Assembly: GCA_037975125.1 (NCBI GenBank)
Contig: CM075853.1
Coordinates: forward strand, 34,618,613-34,682,612
Direction of reading: 5' to 3'
DNA length: 64,000 nucleotides
Source: Latrodectus hesperus
Lineage: Eukaryota; Arthropoda; Arachnida; Araneae; Theridiidae
Below, in pieces: positions 6,661 through 53,141 of the stretch. The notes under the pieces are model-generated. The model was not told the origin of the DNA. It worked only from the letters and a program-made list of their open reading frames with translations, and searched no databases. Each line of letters opens with the position of its first letter. The stretch's first letter is position 1. The translations under genes were made by a program, and so were the position numbers.

Positions 6661-8115
6661 TTATTATAGATTTTTTGGCAGTCAATAATCTTCTATAGCT
6701 GATCTGAGATAGATCAGAGAATTAACAACATATTTTTATAGGATTTTTACTGTTTGTGTAAATATTTTCTAAAGAAAAATGCTTACATGATTAAAAACAC
6801 TTTGTAATTACAAAACATTTGAGAACAATAAAGAATCAATTAAATTGGCCATACATTTTCTTATGAAAACTATGAAGACAAACAGAAATAAGAAAACAAG
6901 TATATAAAATTCATAAAATGATATTAAATGTAAAAATGAGTCAAATTATTATCAAATAGAAATACTTTCATGAATATACTTTACTAAAATGACGGTCATA
7001 TAAAAATATTTTCTTTTTGTTTTAATAACAGGATGTAAAATTTTGAATTTTTCTAAAACTTTCTCAATGACATGATTTATCACAAAATAAATATATTCGT
7101 TAAAATTATTATTAATATGCTCATCTCTTAATAGTTATACAATATGTACATTCTTTTATCTTGGATCGCGTAAGATTAATTTCAGTAATTGAGATTCATA
7201 TTAATAATCCCATAATTAGAGATACTTTAAACTTCTTACACATTGCAAATTCATTTAATCCATGAGCAGTATGCTCTAGTTTAAACATGGCTTTGATAGA
7301 CAAAAATAATAGAACAATTAAATCAGTAGTTTAAATATAGTAAAATTAAAAATTTGTTAAAAATACTTTAACATAAAAAGAATGATATTAATATTTTTAA
7401 ATAACAGTTTAAGCCAGTTTAATTATTTATGAAAGATAATTTTAATCAGTGTATTGTTTATAAACTACTGCAATACGATAAACGGAAAATATCAAAAATT
7501 CCTTTAAAATTCAAGTCATTTCATTTTTTTAAAGAAGAAAAAAATTTTCGATATGTAATAGACCTAACAGATTATGAAAATTTATGTCAAAACAAATACC
7601 AAAATCATTATTATACTTTGTTATTTTTTAAGAAAAGTGTAAAAGTTTGAAATATTTTGATACGTATACAACAAATATAAATATAATTTTTCAAAAATTG
7701 ATTTGTAATCCGCTTTCAAATTATTTTTAACTATATGGTAACCATTGTGTGAAAATTTGAAAAGCAAATAAAATGAAAATTTAATCCTAACAAAGATCTA
7801 AAGTTAACGTTAAATAGTCTATTGATCATTTAAAAAAACTTAATTTCGAAGTACTTGTGTAGAAATACAATAAATTATTTGTGTGTGGGCCATGGGATTA
7901 ATTTTGAGAATAAATTTTGTCTGTGATTCATAGATAAATGATTGAATATTTGATGTAGACAACACGCTTTATGATTATATATCCTTGAAGAAATTATGCA
8001 AACTTTAAAGAAAACATTTTTTTTTGGTATCATTGCTGTTGATAATAGTGTTTGAAAAAGAATAAACTGTGTTTATTTTCAAGTACATATTTAATTTTGA
8101 ATGCGTAGTTTATTT
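6661..8115. other. A+T-rich non-coding DNA
   Basis: Nothing recognisable. The 73-residue frame at 7429-7650 is Lys/Asn/Ile/Phe-rich, has no motif and sits in uniform A+T-rich sequence, so it is treated as chance. Confidence 0.6.
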
Positions 8116-8495
8116 TTTACAATAGTTGTTGTTGTTGCTGATCCCTGTTGTCTAGCAGCGCTAGACCAAGTCTATAACATTGCACACTCTCAGGAAATCA
8201 ATGACCAATAATGGTGACGTATTCATAGATAGGGAAAAGGGGCAGCTTCTGTATTCCAAGTGGACCGGAGCACCAAAGGTAGAAGGCTGACTTAGCTCCT
8301 TACGTGGGTTTGGATCGGAGTTTTCCTTCTCCTAGGTATCTCTTTTAGTCTGGCTCCTACCCAACGAAGACCTGTCTGGCATGGGAGACCCTACCAGTAG
8401 CTAAGCTACCGCCGGCTTAGCTCTCTGGGTTGCAGGAGCACGCAAGCCCGCCCACCACGTCAAGGTGAAGATACCATCGGGCGGGTTTACAATAG
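8116..8495 (-). mobile_element. Non-autonomous retroposon (360 bp) with target-site duplication and (CAA)n tail
   Basis: A markedly GC-richer block at 8126-8485 is flanked by the exact 10-bp direct repeat tttacaatag (8116-8125 and 8486-8495), the signature of target-primed retrotransposition. The (TTG)4 at 8126-8137 becomes a (CAA)4 3' tail on the minus strand, so the element reads from 8485 down to 8126. No open reading frame of useful size exists, so it is a SINE-like or internally deleted LINE-derived copy. The first 151 nt fold into a layout like HDV-type self-cleaving ribozymes, which are known at the 5' ends of several non-LTR families such as R2 and RTE. I do not recognise the family by name. 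The exact duplication suggests a fairly recent insertion. Confidence 0.88.
8335..8485 (-). ncRNA. Candidate HDV-like self-cleaving ribozyme at the retroposon 5' end
   Basis: Read on the minus strand from the first element base (8485), the helices occur in HDV-fold order. P1 is CCCGCCC (8485-8479) with GGGCGGG (8453-8447), 7 bp. P2 is GGTATCT (8475-8469) with AGATACC (8341-8335), 7 bp. P3 is ACC (8466-8464) with GGT (8456-8454), closing a 7-nt loop, and is followed directly by the P1 3' strand. P4 is GCTCCT plus ACCCA (8439-8434, 8430-8426) with TGGGTAGGAGC (8363-8353), with a 3-nt bulge and long internal extensions that include an 8-bp stem. Between P4 and P2 lies CTAAAAG, placing a cytosine (8348) where the catalytic C is expected. 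Weak points: the first pair is C-G rather than the usual G.U, four bases separate P4 from that cytosine, and P1.1 is not clear. Confidence 0.6.
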
Positions 8496-11400
8496 TAAAA
8501 TCTATATGCATCTGAATGTATGTGTATCTGAAGGGAGATTTTACTTCAAATTAAATATTTGATATTTATTTAAATGAGTATTATTTGAATAAATAACATA
8601 CATTTAACAAATAAAAATCTATAGTTTGATTTGACTGAGATTTAATATAGCAAATATTTTTCAATTAAAGTTTTATCTCAAAACCTGTAAGTTTGATGAT
8701 TTGGTAAGTTTTTAACTTTAATATAATGCAGATAATTTATTATGTGAAATCAAATTATCTTTAAAGTAACTATAGATGTTTACAAGGATTTTAAAAAATT
8801 TGGGATTTTTAAGAATTTTATATTCTTTTTTCTAATTCTATTCATTTTTTTTAAATTTTAAATGACAAACAATCTAACAGTTAAAGAAATTATTTATTAC
8901 GTCACTCTTTGGCTTACTTTAAAATCCTTTGATGTTTCATTGAAAAATTGTATTTATATATTTCTCTCTTAAATTCTGGGAATAATTTGAATACCAAATC
9001 TGAAGAGAAACAGTGATTATATTTGAATCGAAATATTTTCTATTGCTGAAAAGTCTTTCCATTTCTGTTTAGCGTCCATTACATTGAAACTTCGACAATT
9101 CTATTTCCATTTTACAAATTTTATGGGATAACGTTTCTATTCTAGTCATTTCACTAGACTTATGAAATAAATAATTCTTGTTATGAACATTCCTTGCATT
9201 TGTAAGAGACTGAATCTGAGGACAGATATTTCTTATAAAAGAAGACATTACATTCCTAAATTATAAGAGAATTCTACAAAATTTTAAATTACAAGTTTAG
9301 GAATCATGGTGATATGATTTAAAATATTTCAAATCTAATCATAAATATGGCATCTGATGCTATTAAATTTCATCCTGAAAATGCTGTACTTTATGTTATT
9401 TTTATATGCGCTGAAAAATATTTTAATAATATTTTTCTACACAAGAAAAATCTAATATTGTATGTGAGGAAAATGTTTGTGAATTTAAACTATTAATATT
9501 TTTATTTGGAAAAAAATAAAGATTTTTATATGTATTTTATTAAAAATTATTATATTTTCCTTTTATAATATTATATATTTAAATTTTCCTTTTTTATTAA
9601 TAACAGAGAATGTAAAATTTTAATTAATATAGAAAATAAACATGTGATTATAAAAGCACACAAATATTTATTTATTGGTAGGAATCAAAATACATTAAAT
9701 ATTTGTCCAAAACAAGGACTTCAAAGCACTTAGATAATTTAGAAAATTCTTGTTTATTACATAGGCTTTTAGTAGGATACTAGCAGTTTTTTTAAGTAAA
9801 CATTTGATGTAAATAATTTAAAGTAAACGTTGAGCTCAGCATCTAAATGTAATGCTTTTTTAAATTTAAACTTCAGGCATTCACTCATAATTTTATGTTT
9901 ATTATGGATGAAAGTTAAATCATATGTGTGTTTGGAAGAATACCATGGATGGAATATAAAATGACGGGAAGATTGTTTTCATTACATACATTTCTGTGAT
10001 CTTATAATGTGTTTATATTATATAAAAATTTATCAGGTGTATTTAAAGATTTTATCAATTTACCAATTTAAATTAATTGTAATGACGAAATTGTTTTAAC
10101 AATATAGGTATATGCAGTAATTTTTTCAATAATATTCCTAATAATAAGTTAATATTAATAAAATGTAGCAGTATTAAAGAAATCCTTTTTATGTTTGCCT
10201 GCAAATTTCAAACACATAAAAACAGGGGAAAATATATATGAAATAATGAATTTCCAGTATTATTGACTGGCACTAGTATAAAAAAACAAATTTTCAATCT
10301 ACTTTATATCTTTATATATCTAATGTAATGTCTGAGTAAAAATTTTAAATTAAATTTTTCTTAAACTTAATAAAAAATATTTTATTCACTTATTAAATTA
10401 TGTAGCTGTAACTTAATTATAACACATTGTTTTGCATAAATTTATGTAATTATTTATGTAAAGTCTTATCCACACTAAAAATAAATTTTAAACTGAGTAG
10501 TAAATAAGGTATGAAAATTGTCTTTGTAACATAAAAATGTAAAGTAACACTCAAAGGTGGGAAATTGATAAAGATTTAAGAATAATCATATCATCATGTA
10601 ATGGGGACAAACAGCCGGATATATTGTTCAGTTCATCACACACTTCCGTCATTGTGTATCATTTATTTGTGAGTGACAGAGTTTTATTTTTTTAGGAAAC
10701 ATTTTTTATGAGAAATTGCAAATAGTTACGAAAGAGTTATTTATATTCAAAAGAAATCTTTAAATGAAAAAACTACACAGTTATCATTTACTTATATACA
10801 CTTATTTTCAAAAATTAGGTAAAAAACATAAAAACTAAAGCACTATTTTAGCTCACTATAAAGCAATGTAGCAAATATATTTAGATTTGAAATAAAATAA
10901 ACTTGCATAAAAATATGAAAACATTTTAAAAGCTACAAAGTAACATCCTACTAGATTCTTTAACAAAAGATTAAAGTCAAAACCCAAATTAAAAATTGTC
11001 ATAAATAAAACAATTTAGGAGCATCTTTAGTCAGCAAAATTACAGAATTTCTATCAAACAATCAGTAATCTTAGATTTAAATATTTTTCATAATTTTATT
11101 ACACTAGTTTCTATGCGTGCAGTAGTGACCTGCTTTGGGAAACTTGTAAATTTAAGTATACTTAATTTGATTCAGATTAAGAGCAGCTAGACTATTCCGA
11201 ACATATAATTTCTTTACAATCTAGTAATTGTTGGTGATTACAGAAACAATACAACTGTAACGGCACTGCTTCCAATATTGTACAGCAACCATTCATTTAA
11301 ATCTAAATATGTATCATGTATTTAGATCTGAGATAGTTGAGGTATGCTAATTCATTGCCCTAACTACGGTAATTTCATATCAAAACAAATTAATTTCAAG

Positions 11401-23585: not shown

Positions 23586-29627
<6,042 letters not shown>

Positions 29628-29762: not shown

Positions 29763-30209
29763 GGTCCCGCAAAGTCTAGGAAAAGCCATTTGCTTGATTC
29801 GTTAAGGTGACTGATGGTCGGAGGGATGGAAATGGGGAATTTTCAGACTGATGCTACTAGGCACCTTAATGTATGTAGCAGTTTGACCAACCGTTTGGAA
29901 ATCAATATCAAACTGAGTCTCTCCTTTCCAAAAATACATTTTCCAGGCCAACCACGATCTACAGCACCAAAAAAAGACAGTTTTATAGCTCTTTCGGTCC
30001 AAAGGGAAGGAAACATTTATGTGCCACAATTTGTTGCAGAATACTCTGTAGCACCAGGGACAAGAATATCAGCAAGTATGCTTCGAACGAGTCTTAAAAA
30101 TGGAAGCCTTAGTCCAAGGAGGCCAGTTGTGTGTGGCTTCCTTATCGTACGACAGAGAAGGACTAGCTTATCTTCAGCAAGAGAATACGTTTCCTTGACC
30201 AGACAGTGA
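29763..30209 (+). pseudogene. Tc1/mariner-type transposase relic, N-terminal part
   Basis: The plus-strand frame reads [12 protein letters not shown], an in-frame TGA at 29808-29810, then an open stretch from Met at 29814 for 131 residues. Residues about 1-30 match the first helix-turn-helix of Tc1-like transposases. PGQPRSTAPKKD (residues 44-55) matches the GRPR-type linker. Residues about 56-130 match the second helix-turn-helix and its exit, including RRPVVC (102-107) and a degenerate 'R.RR..L..ARE.V' segment. The frame ends at a TGA about where the catalytic DDE domain should start, and no DDE motif follows. The DNA-binding half alone survives, with an internal stop, so it is a dead copy. 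No terminal inverted repeats were found. Confidence 0.82.
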
Positions 30210-30362: not shown

Positions 30363-30700
30363 CACCCATGTAAACGCGATAAAGGAATCACAGTGATAAT
30401 CAACAAATACTCAACCTTACAACCTACTTCCAACCACCCTAACTACTATACAGAAGGGTCAAAAATGACGAATCAACTGGAGCAGCTTTTGTTTTTCTAA
30501 TCAATGACAACATCATCATGACAAGTCAATTCTTACTAAATCCTTTGAATAGGGTTTTCCAGGCTGACGCTCTCGGCATCCTTGAAGCCATAAAACACGT
30601 CTTAAACTCCAAATCCCAAAAGCAACAGTCTGGTCCAACAGCCAATCTACACTTCTAGCCATCAACAACCCCCTACATTGCTCCTCCTTATATAACTAGT
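30363..30700 (+). pseudogene. Non-LTR retrotransposon RNase H relic
   Basis: The plus strand encodes an RNase H-like domain. NYYTEGSK (about 30441-30464) is the first catalytic strand, with Asp replaced by Glu. After a one-base frameshift in the A-run 30461-30465 follows NDESTGAAFVFLINDN, then NRVFQADALGILEAIKHV, where the helix Glu is kept. After a second frameshift near 30616-30625 comes VWSNSQSTLLAINNP, where the usual Asp of 'SDSQS' reads Asn. It ends at a TAG near 30697. It is a different, less scrambled copy from the relic near 6 kb and lies about 150 bp downstream of the Tc1-like relic. Two frameshifts and two replaced catalytic residues mean it is inactive. Confidence 0.8.
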
Positions 30701-31482
<782 letters not shown>

Positions 31483-39089: not shown

Positions 39090-39397
39090 CAATTTTTTTC
39101 GTGAAGTAACCTCGCATATTGTTTATCACACGTTTAAATTATACTATAAAATTGAAGACAAATTCAAACGATTTGTAATGAAAAAACAATTGAAACTATT
39201 TTGATGTGAAAGGATGAATTCGATATCTGAAAGTGGTTATAAGAATGTATATTTGTTCTTAAGATACTCATATGTACCCCATATAAAATTCTATTCATTA
39301 TTCCATGGGAATTCAAACCCAGACAATTCAATAAAGTTAAGAAACACTTATATTTATACTGTATTGGTAGTTAGATGTATATTTTAAATTATACACA

Positions 39398-39989
39398 CAC
39401 TGCCCAACATTGAAAATACAATACTAAGAAGGAATTGCCAGAAAGTAACGAAACTCGGCTGACAGAAAGAGACAGCAACGAACTATAAGTGATCACCACC
39501 ACCACCTCCCGTCGGGCGTGTCGATCCACGCATGCTGACGTCACTCTGGCTGCACCAACACCCTATAAACGTTCCACAGTTCCTTGTTCCAACCATCTTC
39601 ACCACAGCTGGTGCACTGAGGACGCGTCCAGATATCTGTCAGCTGGATTTGTCATATGGACCATCCTTCCCCTCTCAGTCCAATCACCATGCTCCTCGTA
39701 AACTCGTCTGTCAGCTGGAACTGACTCCGTCGACGATGGTTTGGTATTCTCGGCAATAACAGGCGTCCTTTGCGACAAGAAAATATTTCAACGATTATCA
39801 TTCCAAGCAGCAATAACGACATGAATATTGACCACTTTGCCGTTTAATCACTTTATATCTAATTCTACGTGCTCTGGTGAGCTGAAACTTTACATCACTT
39901 TCATAACTTGCTAAGGTGCGTCTACTTTGAAATTTTCATAATTTTCTGACCACTCCTTATTGGTGTTGTGTTTTCAATGTTGGGCAGTG
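39398..39989 (-). mobile_element. Internally deleted Tc1-like DNA transposon with terminal inverted repeats
   Basis: The ends at 39398-39420 (starting CACTGCCCAACATTG) and 39967-39989 (ending CAATGTTGGGCAGTG) are inverted copies over 23 bp with one mismatch. Weaker inverted similarity, about 70 percent, continues inward for about 33 more bases. TA follows the right end; on the left TA lies four bases outside (39392-39393, with CACA between), consistent with a TA target duplication disturbed by a small CA slip. The GC-rich interior holds a broken transposase N-terminus on the minus strand. At 592 bp, the catalytic two-thirds of a full-length element is missing, so it could move only with enzyme from elsewhere. 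Confidence 0.88.
39500..39720 (-). pseudogene. Transposase N-terminal relic inside the Tc1-like element
   Basis: The minus-strand translation gives LTDEFTRSMVIGLRGEGWSI (about 39716-39657), matching the first helix-turn-helix of Tc1-like transposases. In another frame follow HQLW, a stop, then RWLEQGTVERL, a stop, and GVGAARVTSACVDRHARRE (about 39612-39500). These correspond to the 'RW.E.G.V.RR.GSGRPR.T...DR' helix and GRPR linker. At least one frameshift and three stops make it non-functional, and no catalytic domain follows. The plus-strand frames at 39489-39759 are antisense shadows. Confidence 0.78.
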
Positions 39990-46345: not shown

Positions 46346-47575
46346 TATATCTGATATTGAATTTAAGCATTTGGTAATTTTCTATTAATTTTAATTATAT
46401 CATTTCACTTCAACTATACATTGATATTTATAGTTATTTCAATTACATATTTATGCACAGAAAATTATTGTTGTAATGTTTATGTCAAAACGATATTAAG
46501 TTGGTGTGGCATATAAAATGTAAGTATCTGATGTATCAGTCCTGAGTTTTGGGATTAATAAATGTAATTAATTGTTTCTTTTCTTCGATTGGTTTATAGA
46601 GCTGAAGGTAATTAGTAAACTATAATAACTAATAATAAGAAACAAAATCAATTTTGAAATTTAAATTGATATTCAAATGTACAAATATAACAAGAATTGC
46701 ATTTTAGAATATAATCCTGGAATTAGTAAAAAACAGGATTCTTTACAGTTTCAAAACCAGTAAATAGTATCAATATCTACTATGTAGAGTCTGTTTTTTA
46801 TATTTACTGAGTTTAAATTCATTTGAGACAAATTGCATAAATCAGTAATGATAACTTCCATTATGATGTAAAAATTTGCAAAAATTTTATTGAAAAATGT
46901 ATTGAGAAATTTGGACACTTTATGATGTAACTAAACATATTAATTTAAATTCATTACATTTGTTATTGTAAAAATTCATTGATATCACTTTGTTAGTATG
47001 CTGAGAAGGCGTAAAGGAGAAATTGCCGACAAGAACCAGCGAATTGTAATGAGTAAGATTTAGATATGCTTGAAATGCAAAATATATCATGATATTCTAT
47101 GGAATTCATGTTGGTTTTTATAGCTAATATACAATTATTATGTATGTAAGCATTATGTATAATATATTAGCTATTCAATTGTTTTATAATATAATGTTCT
47201 CTTAGTTTTTTCAATTGCATATACAGTAAAACTAACAGAAATCATAAATACTACTGTATATGGTAATACAAAAAGTATTCTTTCAATAAATTATTACAGC
47301 TTTTTTATTTCTTAAGAAAATTTGTATTTTACTCTTATTATGTTTAATGTTAAATAGTATTACTTGTGCAAATAAGTGAAGTGAGATCAATTAATATCCA
47401 ATATTTTATATTTAAAAATAAAACTAAATCATATAAAGTATAAAAATAAAATTTATAAATGTAGGTATTAAGTTGTTTAAAATTTTCTCTAAAATTTCCA
47501 AAGCAGAAATTATTTTAAAATTATATGCAAGTGCAAGTCACATGCCTAAGTTTATTTTCTTTTAACAATTGTTTA
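46346..47575. other. A+T-rich non-coding DNA
   Basis: Nothing recognisable before the large TA array. Confidence 0.55.
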
Positions 47576-48025
<450 letters not shown>

Positions 48026-48120
48026 AAATGCAAAGTTAGATGTATAACCAAGAGCACAAGAATATATAAAGATATAAATGTAAAGTTAGACATATAACCA
48101 AAAGCACAAGAATACATAAA
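48026..48120. repeat. Two-copy 50-bp tandem repeat in the element leader
   Basis: Two adjacent copies share aaagttaga..tataacca and agcacaagaata blocks with a 50-bp offset (about 48026-48075 and 48076-48120) and a few substitutions. They are the first unique sequence after the TA array, so they may mark the 5' end of the element or a partial tandem insertion, which is common in Penelope-like elements. Confidence 0.85.
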
Positions 48121-48242: not shown

Positions 48243-48404
48243 ATGGAAAATAGTACATTGAAAAATTAAATGCCAAAAGTAGAATATCAAATGGAAGACA
48301 ACACATTGAAATATTAAAGCATTGAAATATTAAATGGAAAACAATTTATTGAAATATCAAATGGAAAATAACACATTGAAAAGAATACAATAAAAAGAAT
48401 TACA
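48243..48404 (+). repeat. 27-bp tandem repeats upstream of the ORF
   Basis: Units starting atggaaaa and containing acattgaaatat recur from ATGs at 48243, 48270, 48291, 48334 and 48361, with a basic 27-bp step and shorter deviant units between. Each unit could encode a 9-residue MEN..LKY. peptide, but in-frame TAA codons close most of them. The TTG that opens the long ORF lies in the last partial copy of the same acattgaaa motif. Confidence 0.75.
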
Positions 48405-49589
48405 TTGAAAACACTTCAAAGAAAGATAAATATAAATGGAATAAATGTTTTGGAGTTACAAGTATTAAATCTAAATTTTACAAAAAAATTTACATTTAAT
48501 TCTTGTAACTCCAAACTCTGTAAGACATGTCCTAAATTCAATACATCGCAAATTGATAATTCCTATACTTTAAATAAAGCCAGTAAAGCTTACAATGTTA
48601 TATATATGATTGAATGCAAAATTTGTAAATTTAAATATATTGGACATACTTCTAACAATATTAATATGCGCATAAACCTACACAGATCTAATATTAAAAA
48701 TTATAATAATAACAAAAGTTATAACATTGAATTTGAACATTTCAAAATACATAGTTTCGATAATATTACTATAACTATTTTAGATATTGAAATCGACATT
48801 AATTTACGACTAATTAAAGAAAATCAATATATTATTTATTATAAAACCTTAGTATCATTTGGACTTAATGAATTATTTAACAATTTGAAAATTAACTATA
48901 AAAACACAAAATCATTTATGTACTTTAAACCTAATAATAAAAAAACTAAAAGATATAAATTAATAAGACTGGATGGTAGAAAAATTAATAAAACTTATAA
49001 CAATTACAATCTAAATAACTTTATATATTGGAATAATAAAATATACGAATTAGAAGGTCAGTTTGTTAACACCTATAATTTTTCATTTTGTAAAAACTTT
49101 ATTATGAGCTTAAACAAAAAACAATGTATTTTTCTTTTAGAATTTTTGAATAATTTTAACTTTAATAATGAGCATTTTAAGATTTTAATTTTTGACATTT
49201 TTAAATATAAAATAAGTAAACTAAATATAAATTCTAATAAAAATATCAAATCAGATTATTTTGTTATTAACTTTAAACATCCATTATATGATAAAATTGG
49301 ATTTTCGAATATTATTAAGGAGCTTGAACATATATTTCCGTTAAATAATAATGAAATTAAATGTACCTTTAAATATGATCTACCCATTGGTAGACATATA
49401 TTTAATTATAATAAATTCTGCTGTAATATAAATATAAATAAAGAAAGTACAGATTGCTTTTGTGATAACCCAAATTACAGTAAATTTGTAGATTCAACTT
49501 TTGGTCACATAATAACTGGAAATACTGAAATTATATTAAATAATGAATTAAAAAATATCGTTAATAAAGGTAAAAATTTCGACCTATAA
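48405..49589 (+). CDS. Naiad ORF, part 1: GIY-YIG endonuclease and CxC linker
   Basis: This encodes the N-terminal half (394 codons) of the retroelement polyprotein. GIY-YIG domain: VIY at residues 65-67, YIG at 78-80, catalytic Arg89 and the Glu of LIKENQ at 139. Cys71/Cys74 with His112/His116 would supply the CCHH zinc-binding set found in most Penelope-like endonucleases, and Cys34, Cys39 and Cys42 precede the domain. CFC at residues 351-353 is the CxC linker that marks N-terminal-endonuclease Penelope-like elements. The endonuclease should nick DNA to prime reverse transcription. The frame opens after a TAA at 48369 and has no ATG before Met68, inside the GIY-YIG core, so initiation is unclear: TTG at 48405, a lost ATG, or an upstream leader. 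The codon after GKNF starts the overlap with part 2. Confidence 0.85.
   Translation: MKTLQRKININGINVLELQVLNLNFTKKFTFNSCNSKLCKTCPKFNTSQIDNSYTLNKASKAYNVIYMIECKICKFKYIGHTSNNINMRINLHRSNIKNYNNNKSYNIEFEHFKIHSFDNITITILDIEIDINLRLIKENQYIIYYKTLVSFGLNELFNNLKINYKNTKSFMYFKPNNKKTKRYKLIRLDGRKINKTYNNYNLNNFIYWNNKIYELEGQFVNTYNFSFCKNFIMSLNKKQCIFLLEFLNNFNFNNEHFKILIFDIFKYKISKLNINSNKNIKSDYFVINFKHPLYDKIGFSNIIKELEHIFPLNNNEIKCTFKYDLPIGRHIFNYNKFCCNININKESTDCFCDNPNYSKFVDSTFGHIITGNTEIILNNELKNIVNKGKNFDL
48449..48515 (+). repeat. 30-bp hairpin inside the 5' end of the Naiad ORF
   Basis: The arms 48449-48478 and 48486-48515 pair over 30 positions with two mismatches around a 7-nt loop (48479-48485). The arms encode about residues 15-37, including the first Cys of the endonuclease lead-in. 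It could be an RNA structure near the start of translation or an inverted duplication created by template switching. Confidence 0.9.
49574..49580 (+). promoter_or_regulatory. Possible -1 ribosomal slippery heptamer A AAT TTC
   Basis: In the part 1 frame the codons are GGT AAA AAT TTC GAC. The seven bases from 49574 fit the X XXY YYZ slippery rule. A -1 slip there gives exactly the frame that continues into the reverse transcriptase, with the part 1 stop only two codons further on (49587-49589). No strong downstream stem or pseudoknot is visible in the A+T-rich sequence that follows, and Penelope-like elements normally have one uninterrupted ORF, so a simple one-base deletion is at least as likely. 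Confidence 0.35.
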
Positions 49590-50917
49590 ACTATTATAAC
49601 CACAAACAAATTTTAAAATTTTTTATTAATGATATCGATACATTTATTTTTAAAACCTCTAATATTTATTCAATTCCAATAGAATATTTCTCACAATGGA
49701 AATGGAACTTCTACCACAAATTTAAAACAAATATAAATAACTTAAAATTTGAAGGAATAAATAAAAAATATCTAAAAAAGCATATAAAAGAAATACAAAA
49801 TCTTTTCATTATCACACCAGTAGATAAAGCTTTTAATAATTACGCATTTATTTGCAAAAAATTTTACCACCAATTACTTAACGAAGAAATTTCCAATTCA
49901 ATTACTTACAAAATTATTAATTCAAATAAAACAACAATTTTTAAAAAAATTCTTGCATTTGCAAAAAAACTTAAAATTAAAAACATAAACTTTAAAATTC
50001 CATACATTACAATATATCCAAAATTCCATAAAAAACCTGTTAAATTTCGTTTCATTACTTGTGGAAGCAACACATATGCAGATAAATTTGGTAATCTATT
50101 CTCTTATTATTTAAATTTAATCTTAGACAACATTAATAATTCAAATAATACATGGATAATTAAGAATAATAAACCTATAATTGAATTTATTTCCGCCAAT
50201 GAAATTAATGATGTTTCCACTTATGATTTCAAAGATTTATTTACCAGTATTCCACTTGATAAACTTTTTGATATTATTATGTTTAATTTTTATGACTTTA
50301 ATTCAATATTGGATATCGATATAAATTTTTGGAAAGACTTAAGTTTATTTTGTATTTACAATAATTATATTTTTTATGGAGAAAATATTTATTTACAAGT
50401 TAACGGCATTTCCCAGGGTTCCAAATTTTCAAGTATATTGGCAAATTTATTTTTAAACTACTATGAAAAATCATTTATTATACAAATGCCTTTTGCTTAT
50501 AGATATATTGACGATTTAATAGTTTTTAATTGCCTGGAATTCGATAGAATTTACAATAATATATATCCTAAGGAATTAAAATTAATTAAAACCAATATTG
50601 ATAACTTAAAAACTGAATTTCTAGATATTTCAATTACTATAAAAGAAAACTACACATTTACTGACATTTATGATAAAACTAATAATTTTAATTTCAAAGT
50701 TAATAAGATGATTTTCTGGAATTCAAACATTTCAATTAAAATTTATAAAAATATTATTTTTAATCAACTTAATAGAATATATAATATATGTAATAATTTA
50801 AATAATATTAATAAACAAAAAAACAGACTAGAAAATATTTTAACTCATAATGACATTCCAACTAAATTTATTAAACACTATTTGGCTAGTAGAGCATTGC
50901 TTATAAGAGTGAAGTAA
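49580..50917 (+). CDS. Naiad ORF, part 2: telomerase-related reverse transcriptase (-1 frame)
   Basis: It continues the polyprotein in the -1 frame, open from 49580 to the TAA ending at 50917 (445 codons) with no internal stop. The entry RPINYYN follows GKNF of part 1, which together match the 'KG.NF.P' start of the Penelope-like reverse transcriptase core. Next come KFRFITCGS (about 50042-50068), motif A TYDFKDLFTSIP with its Asp at 50225-50227, motif B NGISQGSKFSSILANLFL (from 50402), and motif C YIDD at 50504-50515. All catalytic Asp residues are present. The C-terminus ends KHYLASRALLIRVK with no second endonuclease domain, as expected when GIY-YIG is N-terminal. Either a recent one-base deletion or programmed frameshifting separates it from part 1. 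Confidence 0.85.
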   Translation, partial: RPINYYNHKQILKFFINDIDTFIFKTSNIYSIPIEYFSQWKWNFYHKFKTNINNLKFEGINKKYLKKHIKEIQNLFIITPVDKAFNNYAFICKKFYHQLLNEEISNSITYKIINSNKTTIFKKILAFAKKLKIKNINFKIPYITIYPKFHKKPVKFRFITCGSNTYADKFGNLFSYYLNLILDNINNSNNTWIIKNNKPIIEFISANEINDVSTYDFKDLFTSIPLDKLFDIIMFNFYDFNSILDIDINFWKDLSLFCIYNNYIFYGENIYLQVNGISQGSKFSSILANLFLNYYEKSFIIQMPFAYRYIDDLIVFNCLEFDRIYNNIYPKELKLIKTNIDNLKTEFLDISITIKENYTFTDIYDKTNNFNFKVNKMIFWNSNISIKIYKNIIFNQLNRIYNICNNLNNINKQKNRLENILTHNDIPTKFIKHYLASRALLIRVK

Positions 50918-51559
<642 letters not shown>

Positions 51560-53141
51560 ATAAATTATTTTTCACGATTATAACAATTATTCAACAAAGA
51601 AATATTATCTAAGCAAATATCAAATATATTTTATAATATATTTGCATAAATAAATATTACAAAACACTGATTATGTGTGTCCCAAGAATTCAGTCTGCAT
51701 GAAATTTTTGCAGTAAAAAGAATAAAATTTGCGCATAACTTTTCTTTTGAAGATGAAAAGTAATTCATTATAGCATAAAATATTTAAGTGCTTAGAGATA
51801 TCATCATTTATGTTTTCGGAAAGAAATATATACTTTTCCAATTTACTTTGGTAAATCATTTGCAGTACAGATTGAAAAAAAATATATTTTTATATAATAT
51901 ATATATTTTTTTGTTTAAAATAATAACTTCTCTAATTTATTTAAAGATCCTCAAATATAATTGATGTTCACACTACTTATTCTGTTTCATGAAGAGTGTA
52001 ATATTCCTATTATAGGTAAATATTTATTCAAACTGTATCAGTATTTTATTTTTCTTTATTTAAACTCTCATATTTATGTTAAAATAATAATAAATAAGAA
52101 TGCAATACCGCAAAATTTCAATGTAATTTTATATGATTTTATGATTGTTATTAATTACAATGTAAATATAAAAAAACTTATTCATTTCAGTTTGTGCCAA
52201 AGGGATTTACCTTATTTAAAAACTCGATATTCTCTTATTTTGTCCGATTAAATTTTTAATAATAAATTTTACAGCAAGCATTGTAGAATATGAATGGAAA
52301 TACGAATTAAAAATATAATAAAATTAAATTTAATATAATTGAATAATTACTGATATTTATTACTATTAACTTCAAAAGAAGTCCATATTATATAACAACA
52401 TATTTAAATGATAAATTTATGTAAGCAAAAGATATATCTATATTAAAAAATGAAGTTTCTTTTATATTTTGTATATGTTAATGAATTTTTAATACATGCT
52501 TAGAAAAATTTTCCCCTAAGAAATGGTTAAAGCAACAAAAATAAGGAATCTTCGACTAAAAGAAAAATAATTCACTGAAATTTAGGCAAAAGGTATTTTT
52601 TAACTCTTAAATCTTTAATTTAATTAAACAACCTTTTTGAGCAGCCATACTTTAGAAATATCTAAAGTATTATAAATAAAATTATTATTTTATTTTAAAG
52701 CAAGTATTTTAATACAAATTTTAATATGGATTTTAAATATTTATAGTAATGATTTAAGATTTCTAAATAGCAGCACCGATTAATTTTTTCAATATGTATC
52801 TTATTAACTGTAAGCAATTGGTCAAAAATGTTTCTGGGAAGAAACATATAAAAAGAGAAAAATGAACTAGGAAATAAAAATGATAATATTGATAACATGT
52901 AGGAAAATACATATTAAATCAATAACCTATTCATTTTTACGCAGTTACAATTTTAAATTGAATTTTACGCTTTTATATTAAAAATTTGTTTTACAGATAA
53001 TTTAATTATTCGTTAAGTAAAAATTTAAAAATTAAAGTATCAGCCTTTCGCTTTAACTGATCTAGTCAAATCAAATATCAAAATAGTCGTAAAAGTAAAA
53101 CAATATATTGTAATGTATTCATATGTTAAGTGAAGTGATAC
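51560..53141. other. A+T-rich non-coding DNA
   Basis: No gene or element was recognised. The frames at 51671-51859, 51961-52251 and 52695-52898 lack any motif. Confidence 0.6.

What the first reader, a model, noticed from the sequence alone, without database searches (positions are those of the whole stretch)
8335..8485. HDV-like ribozyme fold exactly at the 5' end of a short retroposon
The insertion is framed by an exact 10-bp target duplication, so its 5' end is known to the base (8485, minus strand). From that base P1 (7 bp), P2 (7 bp), P3 (3 bp with 7-nt loop), P4 (two blocks) and a CTAAAAG joining strand with a candidate catalytic C (8348) occur in HDV-ribozyme order. A ribozyme that cuts at the element start would define the RNA 5' end, as known for R2 and RTE-type elements. 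Here it sits on a 360-bp non-coding passenger. The C-G first pair is unusual.
Basis: partly seen in the sequence, partly recalled or inferred. Interest (0 to 1): 0.8.

Follow-up and report, generated by a model that had tools for sequence, protein, structure and literature searches.

The report
Probable self-cutting RNA starting a retroposon
A short non-coding jumping element in an AT-rich, probably animal, genome appears to begin exactly where a self-cutting RNA of the hepatitis-delta-like kind would cut, which is a known trick of some larger jumping elements and their short passengers, here probably in one more of them.

Summary
On the minus strand, an insertion of about 359 nt starts at 8485 and is framed by an exact direct repeat of 11 bp (9 to 11, because of its CAA tail). 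Its first 151 nt fit an HDV-like double pseudoknot: P1 7 bp, P2 7 bp, P3 3 bp, an L3 with the family's core letters, and a P4 domain. The candidate catalytic C is at 8348. A strict descriptor finds this one site in the window, against about 0.004 expected. Only 2 of 1,188,150 shuffles of the element put even a looser match at its first three bases. The best Rfam match in the element is an HDV ribozyme model starting at 8485, far below threshold (18.3 against 44 bits).

The C-G first pair has precedent: cleavage 5' of C1 was mapped in five trypanosomatid ribozymes (PMC4035085). Short non-coding passengers with 5' HDV-like ribozymes are known (R2 SIDEs, NARTc, SIDER).

I found no second copy, so covariation, a shared 5' end, the helper LINE and the host remain untested, and so does cleavage. 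Verdict: probably a real HDV-like ribozyme on a non-autonomous retroposon, a new member of a known kind.

The parts
8127..8485 (-). short non-coding retroposon; longest stop-to-stop frame 56 aa, (CAA)n tail, no inverted terminal repeats seen
8486..8496 (.). target-site duplication, 5' copy (ACTATTGTAAA)
8116..8126 (.). target-site duplication, 3' copy; limit ambiguous over 9-11 bp
8335..8485 (-). HDV-like ribozyme candidate, predicted cut between 8486 and 8485
8479..8485 (-). P1, 5' strand CCCGCCC; C8485 is the predicted +1
8447..8453 (-). P1, 3' strand GGGCGGG
8469..8475 (-). P2, 5' strand GGTATCT
8335..8341 (-). P2, 3' strand AGATACC
8454..8466 (-). P3 and L3: ACC-TTGACGT-GGT, with U8463 and G8458 as the candidate trans G-U pair and G8461 able to pair with C8446 as a one-pair P1.1 (inferred)
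   Evidence: pair assignment is inference, partly from recalled family structure
8353..8439 (-). P4 domain: two helix blocks closing a region with two predicted inner hairpins
8342..8348 (-). J4/2 CTAAAAG; C8348 candidate catalytic C
8268..8274 (-). possible attenuator: predicted to pair with 8342-8335, that is, to capture the 3' strand of P2
   Evidence: pseudoknot-free model

Best explanation
The element is a non-autonomous non-LTR retroposon whose first 151 nt are an HDV-like self-cleaving ribozyme. A host transcript that reads through the element would fold at its 5' part and cut itself just before C8485. That would release an RNA whose 5' end is the element's first base (inferred). A LINE enzyme supplied in trans would recognise the 3' end and (CAA)n tail and copy the RNA by target-primed reverse transcription, leaving the 9-11 bp repeat (inferred). 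Shown here: the fold, its position on the insertion's edge, the direct repeat, and the lack of a long reading frame and of a recognisable tRNA-type promoter. Not shown: cleavage, the helper, transcription, other copies.
For: Every pair of P1, P2 and P3 is Watson-Crick. One strict descriptor site in the window, against 19 in 8660 shuffled window-strands; 2 of 1,188,150 element shuffles place a looser match at the first three bases. The best Rfam match inside the element is an HDV ribozyme model that begins exactly at 8485, though at 18.3 bits, E 0.41, below its 44-bit cutoff. C8348 alone has a long P2 partner. [quoted passage not shown] The exact repeat fixes the boundary. The closest B box has 4 mismatches in 10 specified letters; no tRNA by ARAGORN and no Rfam family at threshold in the window.
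Against: No covariation: one copy only. The Rfam match is below threshold, and its 3' part aligns to a different joining strand. J1/4 (7 nt to the first P4 block) is longer than the 0-2 nt given for R2 ribozymes (PMC3774820), and 4 nt stand between P4 and the catalytic C, unless P4 is extended by weak pairs (my inference). The P4 domain folds no better than shuffles (z -1.14, 26 of 200 as good). In pseudoknot-free ensembles P1 is formed with probability between 0.98 and 0.03 depending on how much has been transcribed, and P2's 3' strand is mostly captured downstream from 230 nt on. One A-box-like string with one mismatch exists.
Confidence: 0.77

Rival explanations
1. The fold is a decayed or inactive ribozyme relic: the family had an HDV-like ribozyme, but this copy no longer cuts, or cuts too slowly to matter.
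For: Two trypanosomatid SIDER1 beta ribozymes with adequate predicted folds were inactive in vitro (PMC4035085, section read). Competing folds and downstream capture of P2 are predicted here.
Against: No mismatch in P1, P2 or P3, and the core letters are intact. The exact direct repeat suggests a recent insertion (inference).
Confidence: 0.13
2. The element is an ordinary SINE with chance resemblance to an HDV-like fold.
For: Any GC-rich structured RNA can form helices. The descriptor with one G-U allowed per helix expects about 0.10 sites per window (452 in 8660 shuffled window-strands). An A-box-like string with one mismatch lies at 8423-8412.
Against: A match that starts within the first three bases of the element came up in 2 of 1,188,150 shuffles. 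No B box, no tRNA, no Rfam family at threshold in the window.
Confidence: 0.06
3. The ribozyme is real, but the element is a 5'-and-3' remnant of an autonomous LINE (an internally deleted copy or SIDE) rather than an independently assembled non-coding family. This overlaps with the best explanation and shares its mechanism.
For: R2 SIDEs, and trypanosomatid NARTc and RIME, are such internally deleted elements (PMC3414825, PMC4035085). No tRNA was found in the window.
Against: No partner LINE could be compared. No copy in the window or in the collections searched, which are prokaryotic or viral.
Confidence: 0.4

Closest known systems
Trypanosomatid L1Tc/ingi-clade Pr77 ribozymes and their short passengers NARTc, RIME and SIDER (PMC4035085)
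   Same: HDV-like ribozyme at the very 5' end of short non-coding elements; cleavage mapped 5' of a C1; a downstream region that attenuates cleavage in L1Tc and in L1Tco/NARTco
   Different: The sequence was not compared (no Pr77 record was fetched); here P4 is a domain of about 87 nt; the host is probably an animal (inference)
Drosophila R2 SIDEs and R2/R1 hybrid SIDEs (PMC3414825)
   Same: A short non-coding element made of a 5' HDV-like ribozyme and a 3' end recognised by a LINE enzyme
   Different: Those sit in 28S rRNA genes; here the window has no Rfam rRNA match
HDV-F-prausnitzii (RF02682)
   Same: Best Rfam match, same register; P1, P3 and L3 aligned
   Different: 18.3 bits against a cutoff of 44; its 3' joining strand aligns elsewhere; a bacterial ribozyme by its name
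Large HDV-like ribozymes such as drz-Agam-2-1 (PMC4908430, part 1 of 4 read)
   Same: HDV-like core with added peripheral structure; a 3-nt J1/2 spacer still allowed cleavage
   Different: Agam-2-1 has its extra domain in J1/2; here J1/2 is 3 nt and the extra domain is P4

Membership tests
HDV-like ribozymes | nested double pseudoknot order P1-P2-P3-P3'-P1'-P4-J4/2-P2' | tested here: met
   P1.1 is one inferred G-C pair only
HDV-like ribozymes | L3 U and G that form the trans G-U pair; catalytic C in J4/2 | tested here: met
   L3 TTGACGT and C8348; signature from passages of PMC3386971 and PMC10879173. C8348 is the first base of J4/2 only if P4 is extended by weak pairs
HDV-like ribozymes | match to a curated covariance model at its threshold | tested here: not met
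   RF02682 at 18.3 bits against 44; the only other family listed up to E 10 is an unrelated lncRNA
HDV-like ribozymes | self-cleavage 5' of the first P1 nucleotide | not testable with these tools
   bench assay needed
HDV-like ribozymes | compensatory changes in P1, P2 and P4 among copies | not testable with these tools
   no second copy found; the own-genome search did not complete 11 times
Non-autonomous non-LTR retrotransposon (SIDE/RIME/SIDER type) | target-site duplication, 3' repeat tail, no long ORF, no inverted terminal repeats | tested here: met
Non-autonomous non-LTR retrotransposon (SIDE/RIME/SIDER type) | 5' and 3' ends shared with an autonomous LINE | not testable with these tools
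tRNA-derived SINE | A and B boxes of a pol III type 2 promoter | tested here: not met
   best B box has 4 mismatches in 10 specified letters; one A-box-like string with 1 mismatch at 8423-8412; no tRNA. Box consensus letters are recalled

The most novel reading that the evidence does not exclude
An animal SINE family that has no polymerase III promoter at all and lives only on read-through transcripts. Its RNA 5' end would be made by a built-in HDV-like ribozyme with an enlarged P4 domain, and a downstream segment would capture P2 after cutting, so that the RNA becomes a stable template. That would be a ribozyme-headed SINE class beside the tRNA-, 7SL- and 5S-headed ones.
Probability: 0.25. 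Interest if true: 0.6.

Novelty: new member of a known kind. Interest (0 to 1): 0.42.

Why it matters
If it cuts, it adds a probably animal, dispersed (not rDNA-bound) example of a non-coding passenger whose RNA 5' end is defined by a ribozyme rather than by a promoter. It would let one ask how such elements are transcribed, whether the enlarged P4 serves recognition by the helper enzyme, and whether downstream sequence switches the ribozyme off after cutting, as proposed for L1Tc.

Tried and rejected
Copies and relatives: blastn of the element in the window found itself and six short matches of 12-20 nt. Exact patterns from P1/P3, J4/2, the middle and the 3' end found nothing in viral contigs. 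One 16-base pattern found 6 loci, 0 of 6 with a P1 partner, so chance. Genome contigs gave nothing, nor did phages or plasmids. These are prokaryotic or viral collections, so their silence says little about an animal repeat.

Protein trick: one frame of the element was searched for spurious ORFs from other copies: 2 candidates shared words, none scored. Of the 39 homologues of the neighbouring reverse transcriptase, 3 have any name from a source and none names an animal, so the host was not identified.

Rfam's alternative joining strand GCUAAG (about 8420) was rejected because its longest P2 is 4 pairs. A DNA transposon was rejected: no similarity between the first 25 nt and the reverse complement of the last 25, by eye. 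The P4 stability test is negative, as is that of the 3' half (z -0.09, 90 of 200 as good).

Literature: 9 of 10 searches used. The eight on HDV-like ribozymes, SINEs and non-LTR elements list, by titles and first lines of abstracts, no animal SINE with a 5' HDV-like ribozyme outside rDNA. Searches showed only 20 of 441 and 20 of 74 papers, one search found none, and the library lacks most subscription papers. Two papers that I expected to be closest (PMC3308841, PMC3256349; seen only in a reference list) are not held.

Full report
What is there. The window is AT-rich (19 to 30% G+C in 4-kb blocks) and eukaryotic in character (inference: few long frames, a Penelope-like element, long TA arrays). 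The finding lies in one of the window's two stretches of 45% G+C by a sliding 150-nt scan (8113-8571; the other is 39366-39862). On the minus strand, 11 bases (ACTATTGTAAA) stand directly before C8485 and recur exactly at 8126-8116. Between the two copies lie 359 nt without a long reading frame (longest stop-to-stop 56 aa) and without inverted ends, finishing in a CAA repeat. Because the tail can share up to two bases with the repeat, the duplication is 9 to 11 bp. This is the anatomy of a short non-LTR retroposon.

The fold. From C8485: P1 CCCGCCC pairs with GGGCGGG (7 bp); J1/2 GAT; P2 GGTATCT pairs with AGATACC 8341-8335 (7 bp, plus a possible U-G); P3 ACC/GGT around L3 UUGACGU; then a domain closed by GCTCCT/AGGAGC and ACCCA/TGGGT with two predicted inner hairpins (P4); then CAGACTAAAAG leading into P2. 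L3 has the U and G that form the trans G-U pair of the family (PMC3386971, passages read). G8461 of L3 could pair with C8446 just after P1 as a one-pair P1.1, and P4 can be lengthened by weak pairs up to A8349 so that C8348 opens J4/2; both statements are my inference, the first resting partly on recalled family structure. Of the C-N-A sites in the joining region, only C8348 is followed by a long P2 partner (8 pairs, G-U allowed); the next best reaches 5.

Is it more than chance? I scanned for the HDV-like order with L3 letters U...CG.U, a 7-bp P1, a 6-bp P2, a 3-bp P3 and a C-N-A joining strand. With Watson-Crick pairs only, the real window has one site, this one; 8660 shuffled window-strands gave 19, so about 0.004 are expected per window. 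Allowing one G-U per helix, the shuffles gave 452 (about 0.10 per window), and the real window still only this site. In 1,188,150 dinucleotide shuffles of the element, 48 had a match anywhere (one G-U allowed), 1 of them strict, and 2 began in the first three bases. A first, smaller run gave 12 in 345,800 shuffles concatenated 20 at a time, and 1 in 10 shuffled window-strands. The descriptor was written after the site was seen. The L3 string ACCTNNACGTGGT occurs exactly once in the window, here; with up to 2 mismatches it occurs 4 times, no more than chance (mean 2.69). As an independent pointer, the best Rfam match within the element is the HDV ribozyme of F. prausnitzii with its first base at 8485, but at 18.3 bits against a cutoff of 44 and E 0.41 (E 1.6 in the longer stretch); nothing in the window reaches any Rfam cutoff.

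Results against. No second copy was found, so covariation could not be tested. J1/4 is 7 nt to the first P4 block, against 0-2 nt in R2 ribozymes (PMC3774820). The P4 domain is not more stable than its shuffles (z -1.14; 26 of 200 as good), and neither is the 3' half (z -0.09; 90 of 200). In pseudoknot-free ensembles of growing transcripts the mean probability of P1 pairs is 0.98 (39 nt), 0.03 (60), 0.56 (100), 0.90 (137), 0.71 (151), 0.17 (170), 0.89 (200), 0.59 (230), 0.03 (260), 0.03 (300) and 0.41 (359 nt), so misfolds compete. That model cannot hold P1 and P2 together, so low P1 at 170 nt partly reflects P2 winning (0.81).

A possible switch. Once 230 nt are made, the 3' strand of P2 is predicted to pair downstream with mean probability 0.85 (8342-8335 with 8274-8268). 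With the downstream part shuffled, 0 of 100 reach this at 230 nt, and 1 of 100 reach the 0.84 of the full 359 nt. I noticed this in the fold before testing it, and the model ignores the pseudoknot. It recalls the downstream attenuator of L1Tc, and of L1Tco and NARTco, described in PMC4035085 (background and activity sections).

How it most likely works. Read-through transcript, self-cleavage at 8486/8485, an RNA with the element's own 5' end, then target-primed reverse transcription by a LINE enzyme in trans. The cleavage step rests on the fold; the others are inferred from the element's anatomy and from R2 SIDEs and trypanosomatid elements. The lack of a B box and of any tRNA fits an element that has no promoter of its own; one A-box-like string with one mismatch exists at 8423-8412.

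Known or new. Short non-coding elements with a 5' HDV-like ribozyme or its hallmark are established: NARTc, RIME and SIDER (PMC4035085, sections 3, 5, 6, 8 and 13 read) and Drosophila R2 SIDEs (PMC3414825, abstract and discussion read). Cleavage 5' of a C1 is mapped in five trypanosomatid ribozymes, so the C-G first pair is not strange. [quoted passage not shown] A 3-nt J1/2 spacer is compatible with slow activity in a large HDV-like ribozyme (PMC4908430, part 1 of 4 read). PMC7761336 (passages) treats hammerhead retrozymes, a different ribozyme on non-autonomous elements. I therefore file it as a probable new member of a known kind. What could lift it is the reading in the section on the most novel reading.

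Noticed in passing
48372-50917, +: Penelope-like element in two overlapping stop-to-stop frames: a GIY-YIG endonuclease domain (PF01541, E 9.3e-6) upstream of a reverse transcriptase (PF00078, E 7e-7, exactly at its cutoff). The endonuclease-first order recalls the Naiad/Chlamys type (label recalled; the paper search found nothing). Closest protein to the second frame 51% identical.
   Followed up: partly
29811-30206, +: Stop-to-stop frame of 132 aa that reads to me like a Tc1-like transposase fragment (recalled motif); no Pfam match.
   Followed up: partly
30443-30655, +: Possible RNase H fragment of a LINE: RVT_3 at E 0.037, below its cutoff; an IF-2 match is as good (E 0.035), so weak.
   Followed up: partly
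39366-39862: A second G+C-rich island (45%) of about 500 bp with a CAC run, perhaps another retroposon; two frames without a Pfam match, no Rfam match up to E 2 and no HDV-like descriptor hit.
   Followed up: partly
8150-8166, -: GTCTAGC-GCT-GCTAGAC hairpin (7 bp, predicted) close to the 3' tail, a candidate recognition signal for the helper LINE.
   Followed up: no
23593-23801, 29434-29623, 31155-31440, 47574-48026, 51334-51562: Five long TA dinucleotide arrays of 95 to 228 units.
   Followed up: no
8345-8347, -: J4/2 contains TAA; PMC3414825 reports a stop codon in J4/2 of 18 of 19 R2 elements but in none of five SIDEs. Probably coincidence here.
   Followed up: no
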